Positions 1 to 7,761 of a stretch of 7,930 bases of DNA are shown piece by piece; the first letter of the stretch is position 1; each line of letters starts with the position of its first letter. The translations under genes and the position numbers were made by a program. A model generated the notes under the pieces. The model worked only from the letters and a program-made list of their open reading frames with translations, made no database searches and was not told the origin of the DNA. Source of the stretch: JBFMHD01 sp040752395 [NCBI: Candidatus Hydrogenedentota bacterium] (GTDB lineage: Bacteria > JBFMHD01); assembly GCA_040752395.1 (NCBI GenBank), contig JBFMHD010000126.1, positions 1 through 7,930 on the forward strand, in the 5' to 3' direction.

Positions 1-556
1 AAGAATTTTTATAAGTAATATTACCACAGAATCCAAGTACAAATCCGTTATCAATTACTTTAAAAGCTAATTTTTTATCACCTGAGAAACAATGCCAGAC
101 CCCATAAAGTTTCGAACCATCAAAATATGATTTTAATATTTCATGCATTCTTTTATCTGATTCTCTTGAATGAATTATAATTGGCAGCTCCAGGGATAGT
201 GCCAACTCAATAAATTCTCTAAAAATATTTTCCTGTAGTTTTTTATTATCTACATTTCTGTAAAAATCAAGTCCGACTTCTCCGATAGCTTTTAATTTAG
301 TGTTATTTTTTTCTTGCTGTATCATCAAAGTGACTTCCTCAGTAAAACTTTTGATATTATTAGGATGAATACCCCAGGCAAAATATACAATTTCGAAAAG
401 TTCTGCGATTTTTTTTACTTTAGACAGGGATTCGCGAGAATCAGAAGGGTTTAAAATATATTTTACATCGTTCTCTTTTGCCCGCTTTATTACTTCTTCG
501 ATATTATTATCAAATCTTATATCATCAAGATGTGCATGTGAATCAACATAATTCAT
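1..556 (-). CDS. tatD: TatD-family metal-dependent hydrolase/DNase, 3' part cut by the window edge
   Basis: Reading the minus strand from the ATG at 556-554 gives 185 codons with no stop before the window edge. The family is usually about 255 residues, so roughly the last 70 are missing. The TatD metal-binding landmarks are in order: DSHAHLD (His7, His9), GIHP at 62-65, IGEVGLDFYR at 91-100 (Glu93), PIIIHSRE at 125-132 (His129) and HCFSG at 155-159 (His155). The final conserved Asp would lie outside the window. TatD proteins are cytosolic TIM-barrel hydrolases; characterised members are 3'-5' exonucleases or DNases needing divalent metal, but the physiological substrate varies. The start codon overlaps the metG stop (ATGA, 4 bases) and has little Shine-Dalgarno of its own, so translation is probably coupled to metG. 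The metG-tatD pairing is also seen in Bacillus (metS-yabD). Confidence 0.93.
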   Translation of the reverse strand, partial: MNYVDSHAHLDDIRFDNNIEEVIKRAKENDVKYILNPSDSRESLSKVKKIAELFEIVYFAWGIHPNNIKSFTEEVTLMIQQEKNNTKLKAIGEVGLDFYRNVDNKKLQENIFREFIELALSLELPIIIHSRESDKRMHEILKSYFDGSKLYGVWHCFSGDKKLAFKVIDNGFVLGFCGNITYKNS

Positions 557-2097
557 ATTTTAACTTTTTTAAAAAGTATAATACTTTCTTTGAGTTTTTT
601 ACCCTTTTTTAATTTACCAAACAAAAGATTGTCTTTCATAGATACGTCTTTAACCTTTTCTTCAGCTAAACAATCGAGCATCCTTTCAGCTGATTCTGGA
701 ATAAAAGGCTGTAGTAAAATAGCGAGTCTTCTTAAGGAATCAACGACTATATATAAAACAGTTTTCAAACGTTCAATAGCATCTTTCTTATAAAGGTTCC
801 ATGGTGCTTGATGGTCTATATATTGATTTAAAAGTTTTATACATTTCCAGATTTCTTCAAGCGCCTTATTAGTATAAAAATTCTTCATACTATTAAAAAC
901 TCTCTCATATAAAATATTCATCTCATCTATTACTATTTTATCATCATCAGTGTAACTAAAATTGTCTGAAGGGATAACCCCTTCAAAATATTTATGAACC
1001 ATACTAATAGACCTTGAGAAAAGGTTCCCAAGGTCATCTGCAAGATCAGAGTTTAATCTATTAATAAGGTTTTCTTCTTTAAAATCAGCATCAAGCCCGA
1101 ATCCCATCTCTCTTAAAAGAAAATATCTAAACGCATCTTTACTATATTTTTCACCCATCTCAAGCGGTCTTACCACATTATCAAGGCTCTTGCTCATCTT
1201 CGATGTAGCCATCATCCAGTATCCATGAACGTTCAGTTTTTTGTATAAAGGCAGTCCTGCTGATTTCAACATAATGGGCCAGAACACAGCGTGCGGTTTT
1301 AAGATATCCTTTGCGATCAGATGTTCTGCATATCCCCAAAATTTTTTATAATTATCACCAGCCGTGCCCAAACCGCTAATGTAATTTATCAAAGCATCAA
1401 ACCAGACATAAGTGACATAATTTTTATCAAAAGGTAAAGTTATGCCCCAGTTAAGCCTGCTTTTGGGTCTGGAGATGCATAGATCACCAATAGGCTCTTT
1501 TAAGTATGCGAGTATCTCATTTTTATATCGTTCTGGTCTTATAAATTCAGGATTATTATTTATATAATCAAGTAGCCAAGGTCTATATTTTTCCATCTTA
1601 AAAAAATAGTTTTCTTCTTTTATATATTCGAGTTTGGTCTTATGGTCAGGGCAAAAACGCTCTTCGCTGATCATGACCCATTCTTTCTCAGTATAAAACC
1701 TTTCACACCCTGTACAATAATAACCCCCAAATTCACTGAAATATATGTCGTTGTTATGATATACTCTTTTTAATATATCACAAACAACATTGCTATGATA
1801 CTCATCTGTGGTACGTATAAAATTATCAAACGTTATCCCCATCTCAAGCCATGTCTCTTTGAAAATAGAAGCTATCCTGTCAACGTAATCTTTAGGATTA
1901 ACATTCTCTTTTGCTGCTGTTCTTTGTATTTTATCGCCGTGTTCATCAGTACCTGTAAGAAAAAATACCTCGTAATCATTTAATCTATAAAATCTTGCGA
2001 GTGTATCAGCTAAGATTGTAGTGTAAGCATGACCGAGATGTGGTGTAGCGTTAACATAATATATCGGGGTTGTAATATAAAATATCCTCTCAGACAT
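553..2097 (-). CDS. metG: Methionyl-tRNA synthetase (short form without C-terminal tRNA-binding domain)
   Basis: This cytosolic class I aminoacyl-tRNA synthetase charges tRNA-Met with methionine using ATP. The 514-residue protein has the HIGH-type signature HLGH at 20-23, TGTDEHG at 48-54, WFDALINYISG at 232-242 and KMSKS at 300-304. A single zinc knuckle is formed by Cys128, Cys131, Cys149 and His152 (CxxC...CxxH). The anticodon-binding helical domain follows (QAPW motif). The protein stops soon after it, so the C-terminal OB-fold dimerisation/tRNA-binding domain found in enzymes of about 650 residues is absent. Forms without that domain are known, so this need not be a truncation, and the reading frame is clean. 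The ATG start is supported by AGAGGAG at 2108-2102. That site is the end of a dispersed repeat filling the spacer to ricT. No T-box signature (TGGNACC) was seen in the leader. The stop overlaps the tatD start by 4 bases. Confidence 0.97.
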   Translation of the reverse strand: MSERIFYITTPIYYVNATPHLGHAYTTILADTLARFYRLNDYEVFFLTGTDEHGDKIQRTAAKENVNPKDYVDRIASIFKETWLEMGITFDNFIRTTDEYHSNVVCDILKRVYHNNDIYFSEFGGYYCTGCERFYTEKEWVMISEERFCPDHKTKLEYIKEENYFFKMEKYRPWLLDYINNNPEFIRPERYKNEILAYLKEPIGDLCISRPKSRLNWGITLPFDKNYVTYVWFDALINYISGLGTAGDNYKKFWGYAEHLIAKDILKPHAVFWPIMLKSAGLPLYKKLNVHGYWMMATSKMSKSLDNVVRPLEMGEKYSKDAFRYFLLREMGFGLDADFKEENLINRLNSDLADDLGNLFSRSISMVHKYFEGVIPSDNFSYTDDDKIVIDEMNILYERVFNSMKNFYTNKALEEIWKCIKLLNQYIDHQAPWNLYKKDAIERLKTVLYIVVDSLRRLAILLQPFIPESAERMLDCLAEEKVKDVSMKDNLLFGKLKKGKKLKESIILFKKVKI

Positions 2098-2101
2098 ACT
2101 A

Positions 2102-2108
2102 CTCCTCT
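2102..2108 (-). promoter_or_regulatory. Shine-Dalgarno site of metG, inside the repeat end
   Basis: On the minus strand the sequence reads AGAGGAG-TAGT-ATG. It supports the metG start at 2097 and is identical to the site used by the aldolase gene, because both come from the repeat. Confidence 0.8.
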
Positions 2109-2195
2109 GAAAAACGCTGTAACTCTAATAATATCAAGTAGAGGCAAGAAGCAAGATAACGCAAGAACGCAATAACCCAATAACCCAATAGTGTA

Positions 2196-2211
2196 GAGCG
2201 CAAAAGCGCTC
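2196..2211. other. Perfect hairpin inside repeat R1
   Basis: GAGCGC and GCGCTC form a 6-bp GC-rich perfect inverted repeat around an AAAA loop (TTTT on the minus strand). No T-run follows on either strand, so it does not look like an intrinsic terminator. The equivalent place in R2 (7121-7137) keeps an imperfect version. Confidence 0.7.
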
Positions 2212-2234
2212 ATGTTGATTCCTATGAAAAAATA

Positions 2235-2969
2235 CTAAGTAAGAATGGTTTGAGCAGTTTGCTGGTCTGCTGATTGTTTCTCTGGTATCTCCTCGTCTCT
2301 GCCTTCCCTGCGTATCTCAGCCTGGAGTTCTGGAGATAATTCATACATAAGGCAGCACATCAGCCTGCCACAGAGTCCTGATATTTTAAGCGGGTTCAGG
2401 CTCAAATTTTGTTCTTTAGCTGCTCTTATTGATACCGGGCAAAACTCTCTTAAATTTTCAGCACAGCATAACCTCACACCGCAACATCCCAGTCCGCGAA
2501 GCATTTTTGCCTCATCACGAACACCTATCTGTCTTAATTCTATTCTTCGTTTAAATACCTTAGCAAGGTCTTTAACAAGTTCCCTGAAATCAACTCTATT
2601 ATCAGCTCTAAAATAAAAGACATATTTACATCTATCAAAGAGCACTTCGCAGGTTACAGGTTTCATTGGAAGCTTGTGTTCTTCTATCTTTTCCCTGAAA
2701 ACTTTGAGTGCTTTTATAGCCTCTGCCTTGTTCTGTTTCCATTGTTCTATATCTTTATCAGAAGCTTTTCTTATGATTTTTTTAGTAGGTTTAAGCGGCA
2801 TTTCATCTTCTCTATTATAGATTTTAGGGTCAACCACCACATATCCGAGTTCCTGGCCGCGTTCTGTCTCTACAAGCACTCTATCGCCCCTTTTTAAAAC
2901 ATCCTCTTCTACCTGGAAATAATATATCTTTCCTGCTTTTTTAAATTGTACACCTACTATCTCAATCAC
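2235..2969 (-). CDS. ricT: RicT/YaaT-type PSP1-domain protein
   Basis: This 244-residue protein belongs to the PSP1/YaaT family. The cysteine-rich core is very characteristic: GLGCCG at 159-164 (Cys162, Cys163), Cys168, Cys169, Cys177, then SGLCGRLMCC at 197-206 (Cys200, Cys205, Cys206). In Bacillus subtilis RicT acts with RicA (YmcA) and RicF (YlbF) in a complex carrying iron-sulfur clusters. That complex works with RNase Y in mRNA maturation and affects sporulation, competence and biofilm formation; whether that applies here is inference. The start is GTG at 2969, overlapping the holB stop as GTGA, and GGGAGG lies 7 bases upstream. The C-terminal tail after about residue 215 is charged and low in complexity. 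In Bacillus yabA follows; here a repeat and metG follow instead. Confidence 0.93.
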   Translation of the reverse strand: MIEIVGVQFKKAGKIYYFQVEEDVLKRGDRVLVETERGQELGYVVVDPKIYNREDEMPLKPTKKIIRKASDKDIEQWKQNKAEAIKALKVFREKIEEHKLPMKPVTCEVLFDRCKYVFYFRADNRVDFRELVKDLAKVFKRRIELRQIGVRDEAKMLRGLGCCGVRLCCAENLREFCPVSIRAAKEQNLSLNPLKISGLCGRLMCCLMYELSPELQAEIRREGRDEEIPEKQSADQQTAQTILT

Positions 2970-6246: not shown

Positions 6247-6252
6247 ATTATA
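6247..6252 (-). promoter_or_regulatory. Possible -10 box for the phosphatase gene
   Basis: The minus strand carries an exact TATAAT 21 bases before the phosphatase ATG, in a 76-base spacer after the aldolase stop. No good -35 box is found 16-18 bases upstream, so this may be chance in AT-rich DNA. If real, it gives an internal promoter with a leader of about 15 bases. The rest of the spacer is a purine/pyrimidine-biased run on the plus strand (AAGTAAGAAGTGAGAAGT). Confidence 0.3.
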
Positions 6253-6301
6253 GGTGAATAAGAAATAAAAAGTAAGAAGTGAGAAGTATCAGATTTCTTT
6301 C

Positions 6302-6988
6302 TTATTTACATTGTGTAACATCGCATACTATGCAGGGGACATTTCTTCCTGGATACCCTAATTTTTTACGCACCTCCATTATTTTTTCTACGTCTTCTTT
6401 AGATAAATAATTTATCTGTCCTATATTCATAGCATAATAATAGATACGTGCAAAATGTTCAACTGTTTCAAGTCGATAATATGCTTGTTTTAAATCTTCT
6501 CCGAATGTTAAAACACCATGGTTCTGTAACAACATCGCATCGCATTTAGGAACAAGTTCTTTTATCGAGTCAGGGACCTCAGTTGTAGAAGGAGTTGCAT
6601 ACGGTGCTTTTGGTATAGCTCCTAAGGTGGCTATAACCTCGGGTAAAACGCATTTTGATAGATCAAACTCTGATACGGCAAATGCTGTTGAATACTGTGG
6701 ATGAGCATGAACAACTGCTTTAATATCTTCCCTGATGTTATATGCTACAAGATGCATTTTTATCTCAGAAGATGGTTTTTTTGCGCCGTTAAAAACATTG
6801 CCATTCAAATCCATTAAAACAATATCATCTATATTTAACTCGCCTTTACAAACTCCTTGTGGCGTAGCTAAAACCCTGTTTTTTTCAACCCTTATACTTA
6901 TATTCCCATCAAAAGCTACAACTAAACCATTCTCATACATCCGCTTCCCTATCTCAACTATCTCTTTCCTTGCTCTAAATAATTCCAT
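6302..6988 (-). CDS. Class II aldolase/adducin family protein (FucA-like sugar-phosphate aldolase)
   Basis: From the ATG at 6988 the product is 228 residues, close to the family norm. Zinc-dependent class II aldolases of this family (L-fuculose-1-phosphate aldolase, rhamnulose-phosphate aldolase, ribulose-phosphate 4-epimerase, 5-deoxyribulose-phosphate aldolase) share the features seen here: GNIS at 28-31, the catalytic Glu75 in PSSEIKMH, the metal ligands HAHP (His94, His96) and QNHG (His157). They cleave sugar phosphates to dihydroxyacetone phosphate plus an aldehyde; the sugar cannot be assigned. The C-terminus ends in a cysteine-rich tail (Cys219, Cys222, Cys227) beyond the usual fold. 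The open frame extends 39 codons further upstream, but that part is translated repeat sequence. AGAGGAG lies just before Met 6988, which decides the start. It is the first gene of the minus-strand cluster. Confidence 0.9.
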   Translation of the reverse strand: MELFRARKEIVEIGKRMYENGLVVAFDGNISIRVEKNRVLATPQGVCKGELNIDDIVLMDLNGNVFNGAKKPSSEIKMHLVAYNIREDIKAVVHAHPQYSTAFAVSEFDLSKCVLPEVIATLGAIPKAPYATPSTTEVPDSIKELVPKCDAMLLQNHGVLTFGEDLKQAYYRLETVEHFARIYYYAMNIGQINYLSKEDVEKIMEVRKKLGYPGRNVPCIVCDVTQCK

Positions 6989-6993
6989 CTTAT

Positions 6994-7000
6994 CTCCTCT
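6994..7000 (-). promoter_or_regulatory. Shine-Dalgarno site that fixes the aldolase start
   Basis: The minus strand reads AGAGGAG-ATAAG-ATG, ideal spacing for the ATG at 6988. The longer frame starting at 7105 has no comparable site and encodes the repeat. Confidence 0.8.
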
Positions 7001-7149
7001 GAAAAACATTGTAACTCTAATAATATCAAATAGAAGCAAGAGGCAAGATAAACAAACATCTGGTTTTTCATACCTTGTGTAGAGCGCAAAAACGCAAGAA
7101 CCCAATAACCCAATAGTGTAGAGCGCAAATTGTGCTCACGGCGATTCCT
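6994..7149 (-). repeat. Dispersed leader repeat, copy R2 (upstream of the aldolase)
   Basis: This is the same element as 2102-2223 in the same orientation relative to the downstream gene. Shared blocks on the minus strand, in order, are AGGAATC, TGCGCTCTACACTATTGGGT, TTATCTTGC, TTGATATTATTAGAGTTACA and TTTTTCAGAGGAG. Relative to R1 it has one extra base in the hairpin and a 33-nt extra module in the middle that carries a second copy of the GCGCTCTACAC unit. The plus-strand unit GTGTAGAGCGCAAA occurs at 7077-7090 and 7116-7129 here, and at 2191-2204 in R1. The element covers nearly the whole predicted 5' untranslated leader of the aldolase gene. Confidence 0.85.
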
Positions 7150-7245: not shown

Positions 7246-7761
7246 ATGAATAAGATATATAGAATATTATTAGCGTGTATATTAATCATCGGTTTTTCTT
7301 CAACGCTCTTTGCTAAAAATATCTTTAGTGATTTAAAAAAATTGATAACAAAAAAGAGACAAGAGATCATCCAGACAAAGACAATATGGTTCACACTATA
7401 TCTAACAAACAACAAAACTATTGAGTGCCTTGATACAAAATCACCTTATAACCCGAGCAGTATAAAAGTTTTAACTGATTATGAATCTGTTTCAAAGATA
7501 CAATTAAAATATATTAAATATATTGATTTTTCTAAAACCAATAAAAATATTCTCGAGAACGAATGGGCTAATGCTGAGAACGATATAATACATCTTATTA
7601 ATAGCGATATAATGTCAGGAACCATAACTGGCTTTGCAGGCGATTCCTGTAAAATAGAAACACCCTATGGCACTCATAATGTATTATTGAACGGCGTTGA
7701 TTATATCATCATCGCAAAAAGAGAAGAACTCCCAAAGAAAGAAGAAAAAAAACAAGAATAA
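7246..7761 (+). CDS. Secreted or periplasmic hypothetical protein with two beta-rich segments
   Basis: I do not recognise a family for this 171-residue protein. Residues 1-23 look like a signal peptide (MNKIYR, then a hydrophobic core, ending SSTLFA before Lys24). An LLAC at 8-11 resembles a lipobox but lies too close to the N-terminus, with the hydrophobic core continuing after it. After a basic stretch (29-40), residues 49-94 and 123-156 each read like a small beta-barrel segment. Both have a pattern of substrate-like strand, glycine or polar turn, then a strand ending in a hydrophobic I-x-x-I/IDF or IIIA. The second contains GTITGFAGDSCKIETPYGT. An SH3- or Sm-like fold is a guess. The C-terminal tail is Lys/Glu-rich. 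The gene has a strong GGAGG site and is divergent from the minus-strand cluster. Confidence 0.8.
   Translation: MNKIYRILLACILIIGFSSTLFAKNIFSDLKKLITKKRQEIIQTKTIWFTLYLTNNKTIECLDTKSPYNPSSIKVLTDYESVSKIQLKYIKYIDFSKTNKNILENEWANAENDIIHLINSDIMSGTITGFAGDSCKIETPYGTHNVLLNGVDYIIIAKREELPKKEEKKQE

What the first reader, a model, noticed from the sequence alone, without database searches (positions are those of the whole stretch)
2102..2223. Dispersed repeat that acts as a ready-made 5' leader, ending in the Shine-Dalgarno site
Two copies (2102-2223 and 6994-7149) lie in the same orientation directly before unrelated genes (metG and a class II aldolase). In both, similarity stops at AGAGGAG, the ribosome binding site of the downstream gene, and the bases between it and the ATG differ. 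An element that inserts or recombines so as to supply the translation start region would be unusual compared with REP elements or MITEs, which are normally intergenic without providing the binding site. It may coordinate expression of many genes. Two copies cannot separate function from a chance insertion preference.
Basis: partly seen in the sequence, partly recalled or inferred. Interest (0 to 1): 0.6.

Follow-up and report, generated by a model that had tools for sequence, protein, structure and literature searches.

The report
Twin repeat at two ribosome-binding sites
A short stretch of DNA occurs twice in this bacterial fragment, each time squeezed in just before a different gene at the spot where the ribosome attaches; it looks like a small dispersed repeat of a broadly known kind, and whether it serves as a control element could not be settled because the rest of the genome is not available.

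Summary
Two sense-oriented copies (2223-2102 and 7149-6994, minus strand) share 110 of 122 aligned bases. The alignment score is 110, against a maximum of 32 in 1000 shuffles. Both end at AGAGGAG, the only two AGAGGAG sites in the window. Their flanks do not match.

New here: both copies also BEGIN with AGGA. Collapsing each to one AGGA(G) restores a Shine-Dalgarno site before metG and the aldolase; removing the whole repeat leaves neither gene with one. So the ribosome site may be the insertion target, split and duplicated, rather than cargo. Against: 8 of the window's 11 AGGAG sites lie inside genes, so loss of in-gene insertions must be assumed.

The 3' block carries an extended -10-like TGATATTAT 19 nt before AGAGGAG; a portable promoter remains open.

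Closest known: mycobacterial MIRUs and TAACTGA heptamer arrays before start codons. Two copies cannot prove function.

The parts
2102..2223 (-). Copy 1 of the repeat (122 nt), between ricT (stop codon ends at 2235) and metG (start 2097)
6994..7149 (-). Copy 2 of the repeat (156 nt), upstream of the class II aldolase gene (start 6988); divergent orf9 starts at 7246 on the + strand
2220..2223 (-). AGGA at the 5' end of copy 1 (possible left half of a split Shine-Dalgarno)
7146..7149 (-). AGGA at the 5' end of copy 2
2196..2211 (-). Hairpin GAGCGC-TTTT-GCGCTC near the 5' end of copy 1; no U run after it in the sense direction
   Evidence: hairpin, listed on the + strand; fold
7121..7137 (-). Corresponding imperfect hairpin GAGCAC-AATTT-GCGCTC in copy 2 (one A-C mismatch)
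   Evidence: sequence
2160..2190 (-). Octamer array (TATTGGGT)2(TATTGCGT)(TCTTGCG) in copy 1
7085..7115 (-). Octamer array in copy 2, 29 of 31 identical to copy 1
7052..7084 (-). 33-nt stretch present only in copy 2; begins with a second CTCTACAC
2139..2159 (-). Heptamer-like CTTGCTT/CTTGCCT stretch of copy 1, 19 of 21 identical to copy 2
7031..7051 (-). Heptamer-like CTTGCCT/CTTGCTT stretch of copy 2
2128..2136 (-). TGATATTAT, extended -10-like motif, copy 1
7020..7028 (-). TGATATTAT, extended -10-like motif, copy 2
2102..2108 (-). AGAGGAG, Shine-Dalgarno site of metG, 3' end of copy 1
6994..7000 (-). AGAGGAG, Shine-Dalgarno site of the aldolase gene, 3' end of copy 2
553..2097 (-). metG, methionine--tRNA ligase
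6302..6988 (-). class II aldolase/adducin family protein (FucA-like; below the cut-off of each of the 25 NCBIfam families shown, of 32 matched)

Best explanation
This is a small (about 120-155 nt) apparently non-coding dispersed repeat that came to lie inside the Shine-Dalgarno sequence of two unrelated genes. Shown: the two copies, their orientation, their sharp ends, AGGA at both ends, and a normal Shine-Dalgarno remaining next to each start codon. Inferred: the target was an existing AGGAG; insertion duplicated AGGA (or joined at AGGA), so the right-hand copy kept the gene translatable. AGGAG lies mostly on the coding strand, so sense orientation follows from target choice; that the copies sit at starts rather than inside genes would follow if insertions at AGGAG inside genes are lost. 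The repeat then need not regulate anything. Once in place it forms most of the 5' leader and may also contribute a promoter (extended -10 TGATATTAT). The internal octamers and heptamers probably vary by slippage or recombination. The enzyme that moves it, if any, is unknown.
For: The first four bases of the repeat are AGGA in both copies and the last five AGGAG. AGGA or GGAG begins a minus-strand position of this window with frequency 0.0078, and lies within six bases with frequency 0.021. Joined flanks with one AGGAG give TTCATAGGAGTAGT-ATG and CAGAAAGGAGATAAG-ATG (anti-SD duplex -6.8 and -8.7 kcal/mol). Without it the two starts would have none (+0.6, -0.3), whereas 5 of the 8 other genes here have sites at -8 or better. 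10 of the 11 AGGAG sites in the window are on the minus strand, the strand of all genes here but one, which would give sense orientation. Outside the repeat the flanks match at 7 of 30 and 3 of 30. In copy 1 the repeat takes up all but 15 nt of the gap between two genes of a tight gene string. A precedent for repeats inserting at translation starts with little cost is MIRU (PMC12548453 passage).
Against: Only two copies. 8 of the 11 AGGAG sites in the window lie inside genes away from any start; only 3 (metG, aldolase, tmk) precede a start, so target choice alone does not explain the position and selection must be added. The AGGA match is post hoc; AGGA is common on this strand (42 places), and the 5' AGGA may simply be the repeat's own sequence (in both copies it stands 6 nt before an ATG or GTG). 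The eight bases CAGAGGAG are identical in both copies, more than the five that a shared target would require. 3 of 8 other genes lack a good site, so SD-less ancestors are possible; 13% of 300 random 20-mers reach -6 kcal/mol. No empty site in a relative was found.
Confidence: 0.38

Rival explanations
1. Portable expression leader: the repeat itself carries promoter, 5' untranslated region and Shine-Dalgarno, and supplies all three to whichever gene it lands before.
For: The last 37 nt are 34 of 37 identical and hold TGATATTAT 19 nt before AGAGGAG in both copies, which would give a leader of about 23-25 nt if transcription began about 7 nt after it (inference). TGNTATTAT has 3 matches in the window against 0.88 expected; 15 of 200 shuffles reach 3; two of the three are the two copies, so they are not independent. 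CAGAGGAG is identical in both, and AGAGGAG occurs nowhere else in the window.
Against: No -35 better than 3 or 4 of 6, and that at a 15-nt spacer; the promoter scan listed no site in either copy and found no excess over shuffles (36 against 35.7). Copy 1 sits inside a tight gene string that would probably be transcribed anyway. AGGA at the 5' end is unexplained. It requires both genes to have lacked a Shine-Dalgarno before, or to have lost it.
Confidence: 0.27
2. Ectopic gene conversion or duplication of one gene's regulatory region onto another: not an element, just two copies of one leader.
For: Exactly two copies seen, nearly full length, 110 of 122 identical; no further copy found by the exact-pattern scans of parts of the repeat or by blastn of copy 1 against plasmids.
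Against: Absence elsewhere carries little weight, since the genome itself was not searchable. The octamer and heptamer arrays and the hairpin look like repeat-element anatomy rather than an ordinary leader.
Confidence: 0.2
3. Cis-regulatory RNA (riboswitch, T-box or attenuator) shared by two co-regulated genes.
For: metG is a gene of the sort that can be T-box controlled (recalled); a perfect hairpin stands at the 5' end of copy 1.
Against: No Rfam match at gathering; at relaxed thresholds one chance-level antisense match to a microRNA family at copy 1 (14.5 bits against a cut-off of 93, E 1.9) and none at copy 2. The folds are no more stable than shuffles (z +1.07 and +0.69; 176 and 153 of 200 shuffles fold at least as well). 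The hairpin is not kept intact in copy 2. The aldolase scores below the mtnB cut-off (85.5 against 137 bits), so a methionine link is not shown.
Confidence: 0.06
4. Decayed non-autonomous IS200/IS605- or REP-type element.
For: A hairpin lies near the 5' end, and AGGA at both ends could be a cleavage or target tetranucleotide.
Against: The tetranucleotide 5' of the hairpin, which guides cleavage in IS200/IS605 elements and is conserved in REPs (PMC8266576 passages), is not kept between copies: ACAT against CCGT. No Y1 transposase could be sought in the genome.
Confidence: 0.09

Closest known systems
MIRU, mycobacterial interspersed repetitive units
   Different: MIRUs carry an ORF coupled to the downstream gene with -4 nt spacing; here the possible small ORF is 67 codons in copy 1 and 23 in copy 2, in different frames, and is not coupled that way. 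The site here is the Shine-Dalgarno, not the start codon. No sequence comparison with MIRUs was made.
TAACTGA heptamer direct repeats of Beggiatoaceae, Cyanobacteria and Bacteroidetes
   Same: Heptamer arrays, in the best-studied genome mostly forward-oriented and just upstream of start codons of functionally unrelated, partly essential genes; a translational role is proposed (PMC4679880, abstract and 12 passages).
   Different: Different unit sequence; those arrays mostly overlap the expected ribosome site, and only about 10% of the repeat-bearing regions also hold a Shine-Dalgarno; they are described as arrays, not as a 120-nt composite with hairpin and Shine-Dalgarno.
Small MITE-like bacterial repeats: BOX, RUP and SPRITE of pneumococcus; Correia elements; enterobacterial RU repeats
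   Same: Small interspersed repeats, partly modular, some within transcribed 5' regions (PMC3049150, five passages; RU repeats: PMC2759123, abstract start in a search listing only).
   Different: MITEs are characterised there by terminal inverted repeats and highly base-paired structure; neither is present here.

Membership tests
MITE | terminal inverted repeats | tested here: not met
   The ends match at most 4 of 12 at the offsets tried (0-3 either way)
MITE | highly base-paired secondary structure | tested here: not met
   z-scores +1.07 and +0.69, not more stable than shuffles
MITE | target site duplication | tested here: inconclusive
   AGGA at both ends of both copies, but it could belong to the repeat
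MITE | many copies and a related autonomous transposon | not testable with these tools
   no genome held
MIRU | location at translation starts, read in the direction of the gene | tested here: met
   2 of 2 copies end 4-5 nt before a start codon, sense-oriented; at the Shine-Dalgarno rather than on the start codon itself
MIRU | internal ORF coupled to the downstream gene | tested here: not met
   67 and 23 codons, different frames; in copy 1 it runs past the metG start, in copy 2 it stops well before the aldolase
REP / IS200-IS605 non-autonomous | conserved tetranucleotide immediately 5' of the hairpin | tested here: not met
   ACAT against CCGT
TAACTGA-type heptamer leader | direct heptamer array within several nt of the start codon | tested here: not met
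   Tandem units are octamer- and heptamer-like of other sequence; the heptamer stretch ends 41 and 42 nt before the start codons (coordinates)
Riboswitch or T-box | match to a curated covariance model | tested here: not met
   0 matches at gathering; nothing credible at relaxed thresholds
Mobile promoter | functional promoter inside the repeat | tested here: inconclusive
   extended -10-like TGATATTAT present, -35 poor; no expression data

The most novel reading that the evidence does not exclude
A family of small repeats in this bacterium uses the Shine-Dalgarno sequence itself as its insertion target and rebuilds it by duplicating AGGA, so that surviving insertions are sense-oriented, leave the gene translatable and add a ready-made leader with its own -10 element, a near-neutral landing strategy that could rewire many genes at once.
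Probability: 0.14. Interest if true: 0.65.

Novelty: new variant of a known kind. Interest (0 to 1): 0.33.

Why it matters
If Shine-Dalgarno-targeted insertion holds up, it would be a simple way for a selfish repeat to avoid harming its host, comparable to what is proposed for MIRUs at start codons, and it would warn against reading 'always sense-oriented and always ends at the ribosome site' as proof of regulation. If instead the repeat carries promoter and ribosome site, it would be a mobile expression unit. On present evidence it is a two-copy repeat in one 7.9-kb fragment.

Tried and rejected
Genome-wide search with the repeat: not possible, no genome is held. Exact 20-mer TTGATATTATTAGAGTTACA in genome contigs: one match, L001, an archaeal MAG. 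It shares 22 bases with copy 2 and nothing more and the stretch looks protein-coding, so I take it as chance. That used the only scan; no second was asked for. The genome behind L001 was searched once for DUF327, only to see the control genomes (0 of 1; controls 2 of 14, Bacillus subtilis and Thermotoga maritima). Patterns in viral contigs: 0 stretches, 0, 2 stretches of what looks like one phage region, chance, 0. A MetG search of viral contigs found nothing. Plasmid search with copy 1: no match. The whole window against phages matched 3 records, each only at 2350-2618 within ricT. MetG against plasmids: 308 records, all below 60% identity, at most 43.9% in the 8 rows listed; no close relative. 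The taxon was not determined.

Heptamer TTGCYTCTTGCYTCTTGCYTC: 40 viral stretches (contexts). Aligned whole to both copies, none of the 43 loci held scores above 44 (the L001 match; next L036 at 43), against 110 between the copies, so none holds the repeat. In 19 of the 40 the reverse complement abuts AGGAATG or CGGAATG. These heptamers are generic and were not used as evidence for the repeat.

Rejected: N-terminal coding extension. The 3' end lies 4 nt from one start and 5 nt from the other, so the frames differ, although copy 2 is open in the aldolase frame back to 7105. Rejected: intrinsic terminator in the sense direction (no U run after the hairpin; one search lists it on the other strand, with a poor tail). 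Rejected: conserved small ORF. In one search the AphA-like start was set one base off (ATG is 6225-6223); its weak value does not affect the argument. The 'frame offset' lines were ill-defined and are not used.

Paper searches: (10 of 10). One search looked for four short octamer strings and found one unrelated fish-marker paper. None of the listed titles or abstract starts describes a repeat that inserts into Shine-Dalgarno sequences; one search held the phrases 'into the Shine-Dalgarno' and 'duplicated Shine-Dalgarno', with 0 occurrences in the 10 papers listed of 1,169 that held at least two of its terms. This is not proof that none is in print.

Full report
WHAT IS THERE. The window is 33% G+C and holds a minus-strand gene string tmk, DUF327, holB, ricT, metG, tatD, preceded by a class II aldolase, an AphA-like phosphatase and a GNAT acetyltransferase, with one divergent plus-strand ORF at 7246. 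Copy 1 of the repeat fills 122 of the 137 nt between ricT (stop codon ends at 2235) and metG (start 2097). Copy 2 (156 nt) precedes the aldolase (start 6988). Both are read in the direction of the downstream gene.

IS IT MORE THAN CHANCE. Yes. 110 of 122 aligned bases are identical, with one 33-nt stretch only in copy 2 and a 1-nt loop difference. The score is 110, against a maximum of 32 in 1000 dinucleotide shuffles. Beyond the ends, 7 of 30 and 3 of 30 bases match. No third copy is in the window (best score elsewhere 28).

ANATOMY (5' to 3', sense). AGGAATC; a hairpin GAGCGC-TTTT-GCGCTC, imperfect in copy 2; an octamer array of TATTGGGT and TCTTGCGT-like units; in copy 2 only, a 33-nt stretch starting with a second CTCTACAC; a heptamer-like CTTGCYT stretch; then a 37-nt block, 34 of 37 identical, holding TGATATTAT, a run of five T, and AGAGGAG. 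The RNA folds are no more stable than shuffles and there is no Rfam match at gathering or credible one below it. No terminal inverted repeats were found. The AGGA-N6-RTG at the 5' end could start a small ORF, but it is 67 codons in copy 1 and 23 in copy 2, in different frames, so it is not a conserved peptide.

WHOSE SHINE-DALGARNO IS IT. In favour: AGAGGAG occurs only twice in the window, at these two places, and in none of the 20-nt stretches before the 8 other starts. Competing: both copies also begin with AGGA. Collapsing each copy to a single AGGAG gives CAT-AGGAG-TAGT-ATG before metG and GAA-AGGAG-ATAAG-ATG before the aldolase, with anti-SD duplex energies of -6.8 and -8.7 kcal/mol. Taking out the whole repeat leaves +0.6 and -0.3. 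Five of the 8 other genes have -8 or better, three do not, and 13% of 300 random 20-mers reach -6, so an ancestral site at both loci is likely but not certain. AGGA or GGAG begins a minus-strand position of the window with frequency 0.8%, and lies within six bases with 2.1%. This is a post hoc test and is weighed as such. AGGAG itself occurs 11 times, 10 of them on the minus strand, but 8 of the 11 lie inside genes away from starts. So a preference for AGGAG would give sense orientation by itself, while the position at starts needs insertions inside genes to be lost. With that, I still prefer insertion into the Shine-Dalgarno, because it explains the orientation, the 3' boundary, the 5' AGGA and the viability of both genes. 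The identity of CAG before AGGAG in both copies is then the repeat's own end.

PROMOTER. TGATATTAT ends 19 nt before AGAGGAG in both copies. TGNTATTAT has 3 matches in the window against 0.88 expected, 15 of 200 shuffles reach 3, and two of the three are these copies. The best -35-like hexamer is TTGCTT or TTGCCT at a 15-nt spacer (3 and 4 of 6), and the simple promoter scan found no excess over shuffles and listed no site in either copy. So a promoter is possible, not shown.

WHAT COULD NOT BE DONE. The scans that were allowed found no related sequence. Absence there means little, because no close relative of this organism was found in them: MetG against plasmids reached at most 43.9% identity in the 8 rows listed, and all 308 records lie below 60%.

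KNOWN KINDS. [quoted passage not shown] So repeats placed at the translation start region, in sense, before unrelated genes, are a described kind. The composite here fits neither: the MIRU ORF test fails, the heptamer differs in unit and position, and MITE inverted repeats and folding fail (membership table).

VERDICT. A real, small repeat in two copies, more likely than any single rival to have inserted at Shine-Dalgarno sites, though at less than even odds; leader function undemonstrated. Interest 0.33; it would rise if a genome showed many copies with split AGGA ends.

Noticed in passing
window 6247-6288 (minus strand): A second, unrelated heptamer array (TAAGAAG on the + strand, 6259-6288) stands just upstream of a TATAAT (6252-6247) and of TTACAG (sequence printed) before the AphA-like gene: again a pyrimidine-rich array directly ahead of a -10-like hexamer, as in the repeat.
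   Followed up: partly
window 6988-7105 (minus strand): Copy 2 leaves the aldolase reading frame open upstream to a TTG at 7105, so automatic annotation could mis-call a 267-aa protein that includes part of the repeat.
   Followed up: yes
19 of 40 IMG/VR loci, e.g. L005 10262-10282, L007 240-260: In what looks like one phage gene family, (GAGGCAA)3 directly abuts AGGAATG or CGGAATG at the start of a frame of 303-330 codons in 16 of the 19, shorter in 3.
   Followed up: partly
L036 around 909-992: A 98-nt (GCAAGAA)n array directly abuts GGAGGAATG in the sense direction of a 223-codon frame: another heptamer array ending at a Shine-Dalgarno.
   Followed up: no
window 2350-2618: Three unannotated 'Bacteriophage sp.' records from human faeces match the ricT gene at 66-71%; these may be bacterial contigs deposited as phage.
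   Followed up: no
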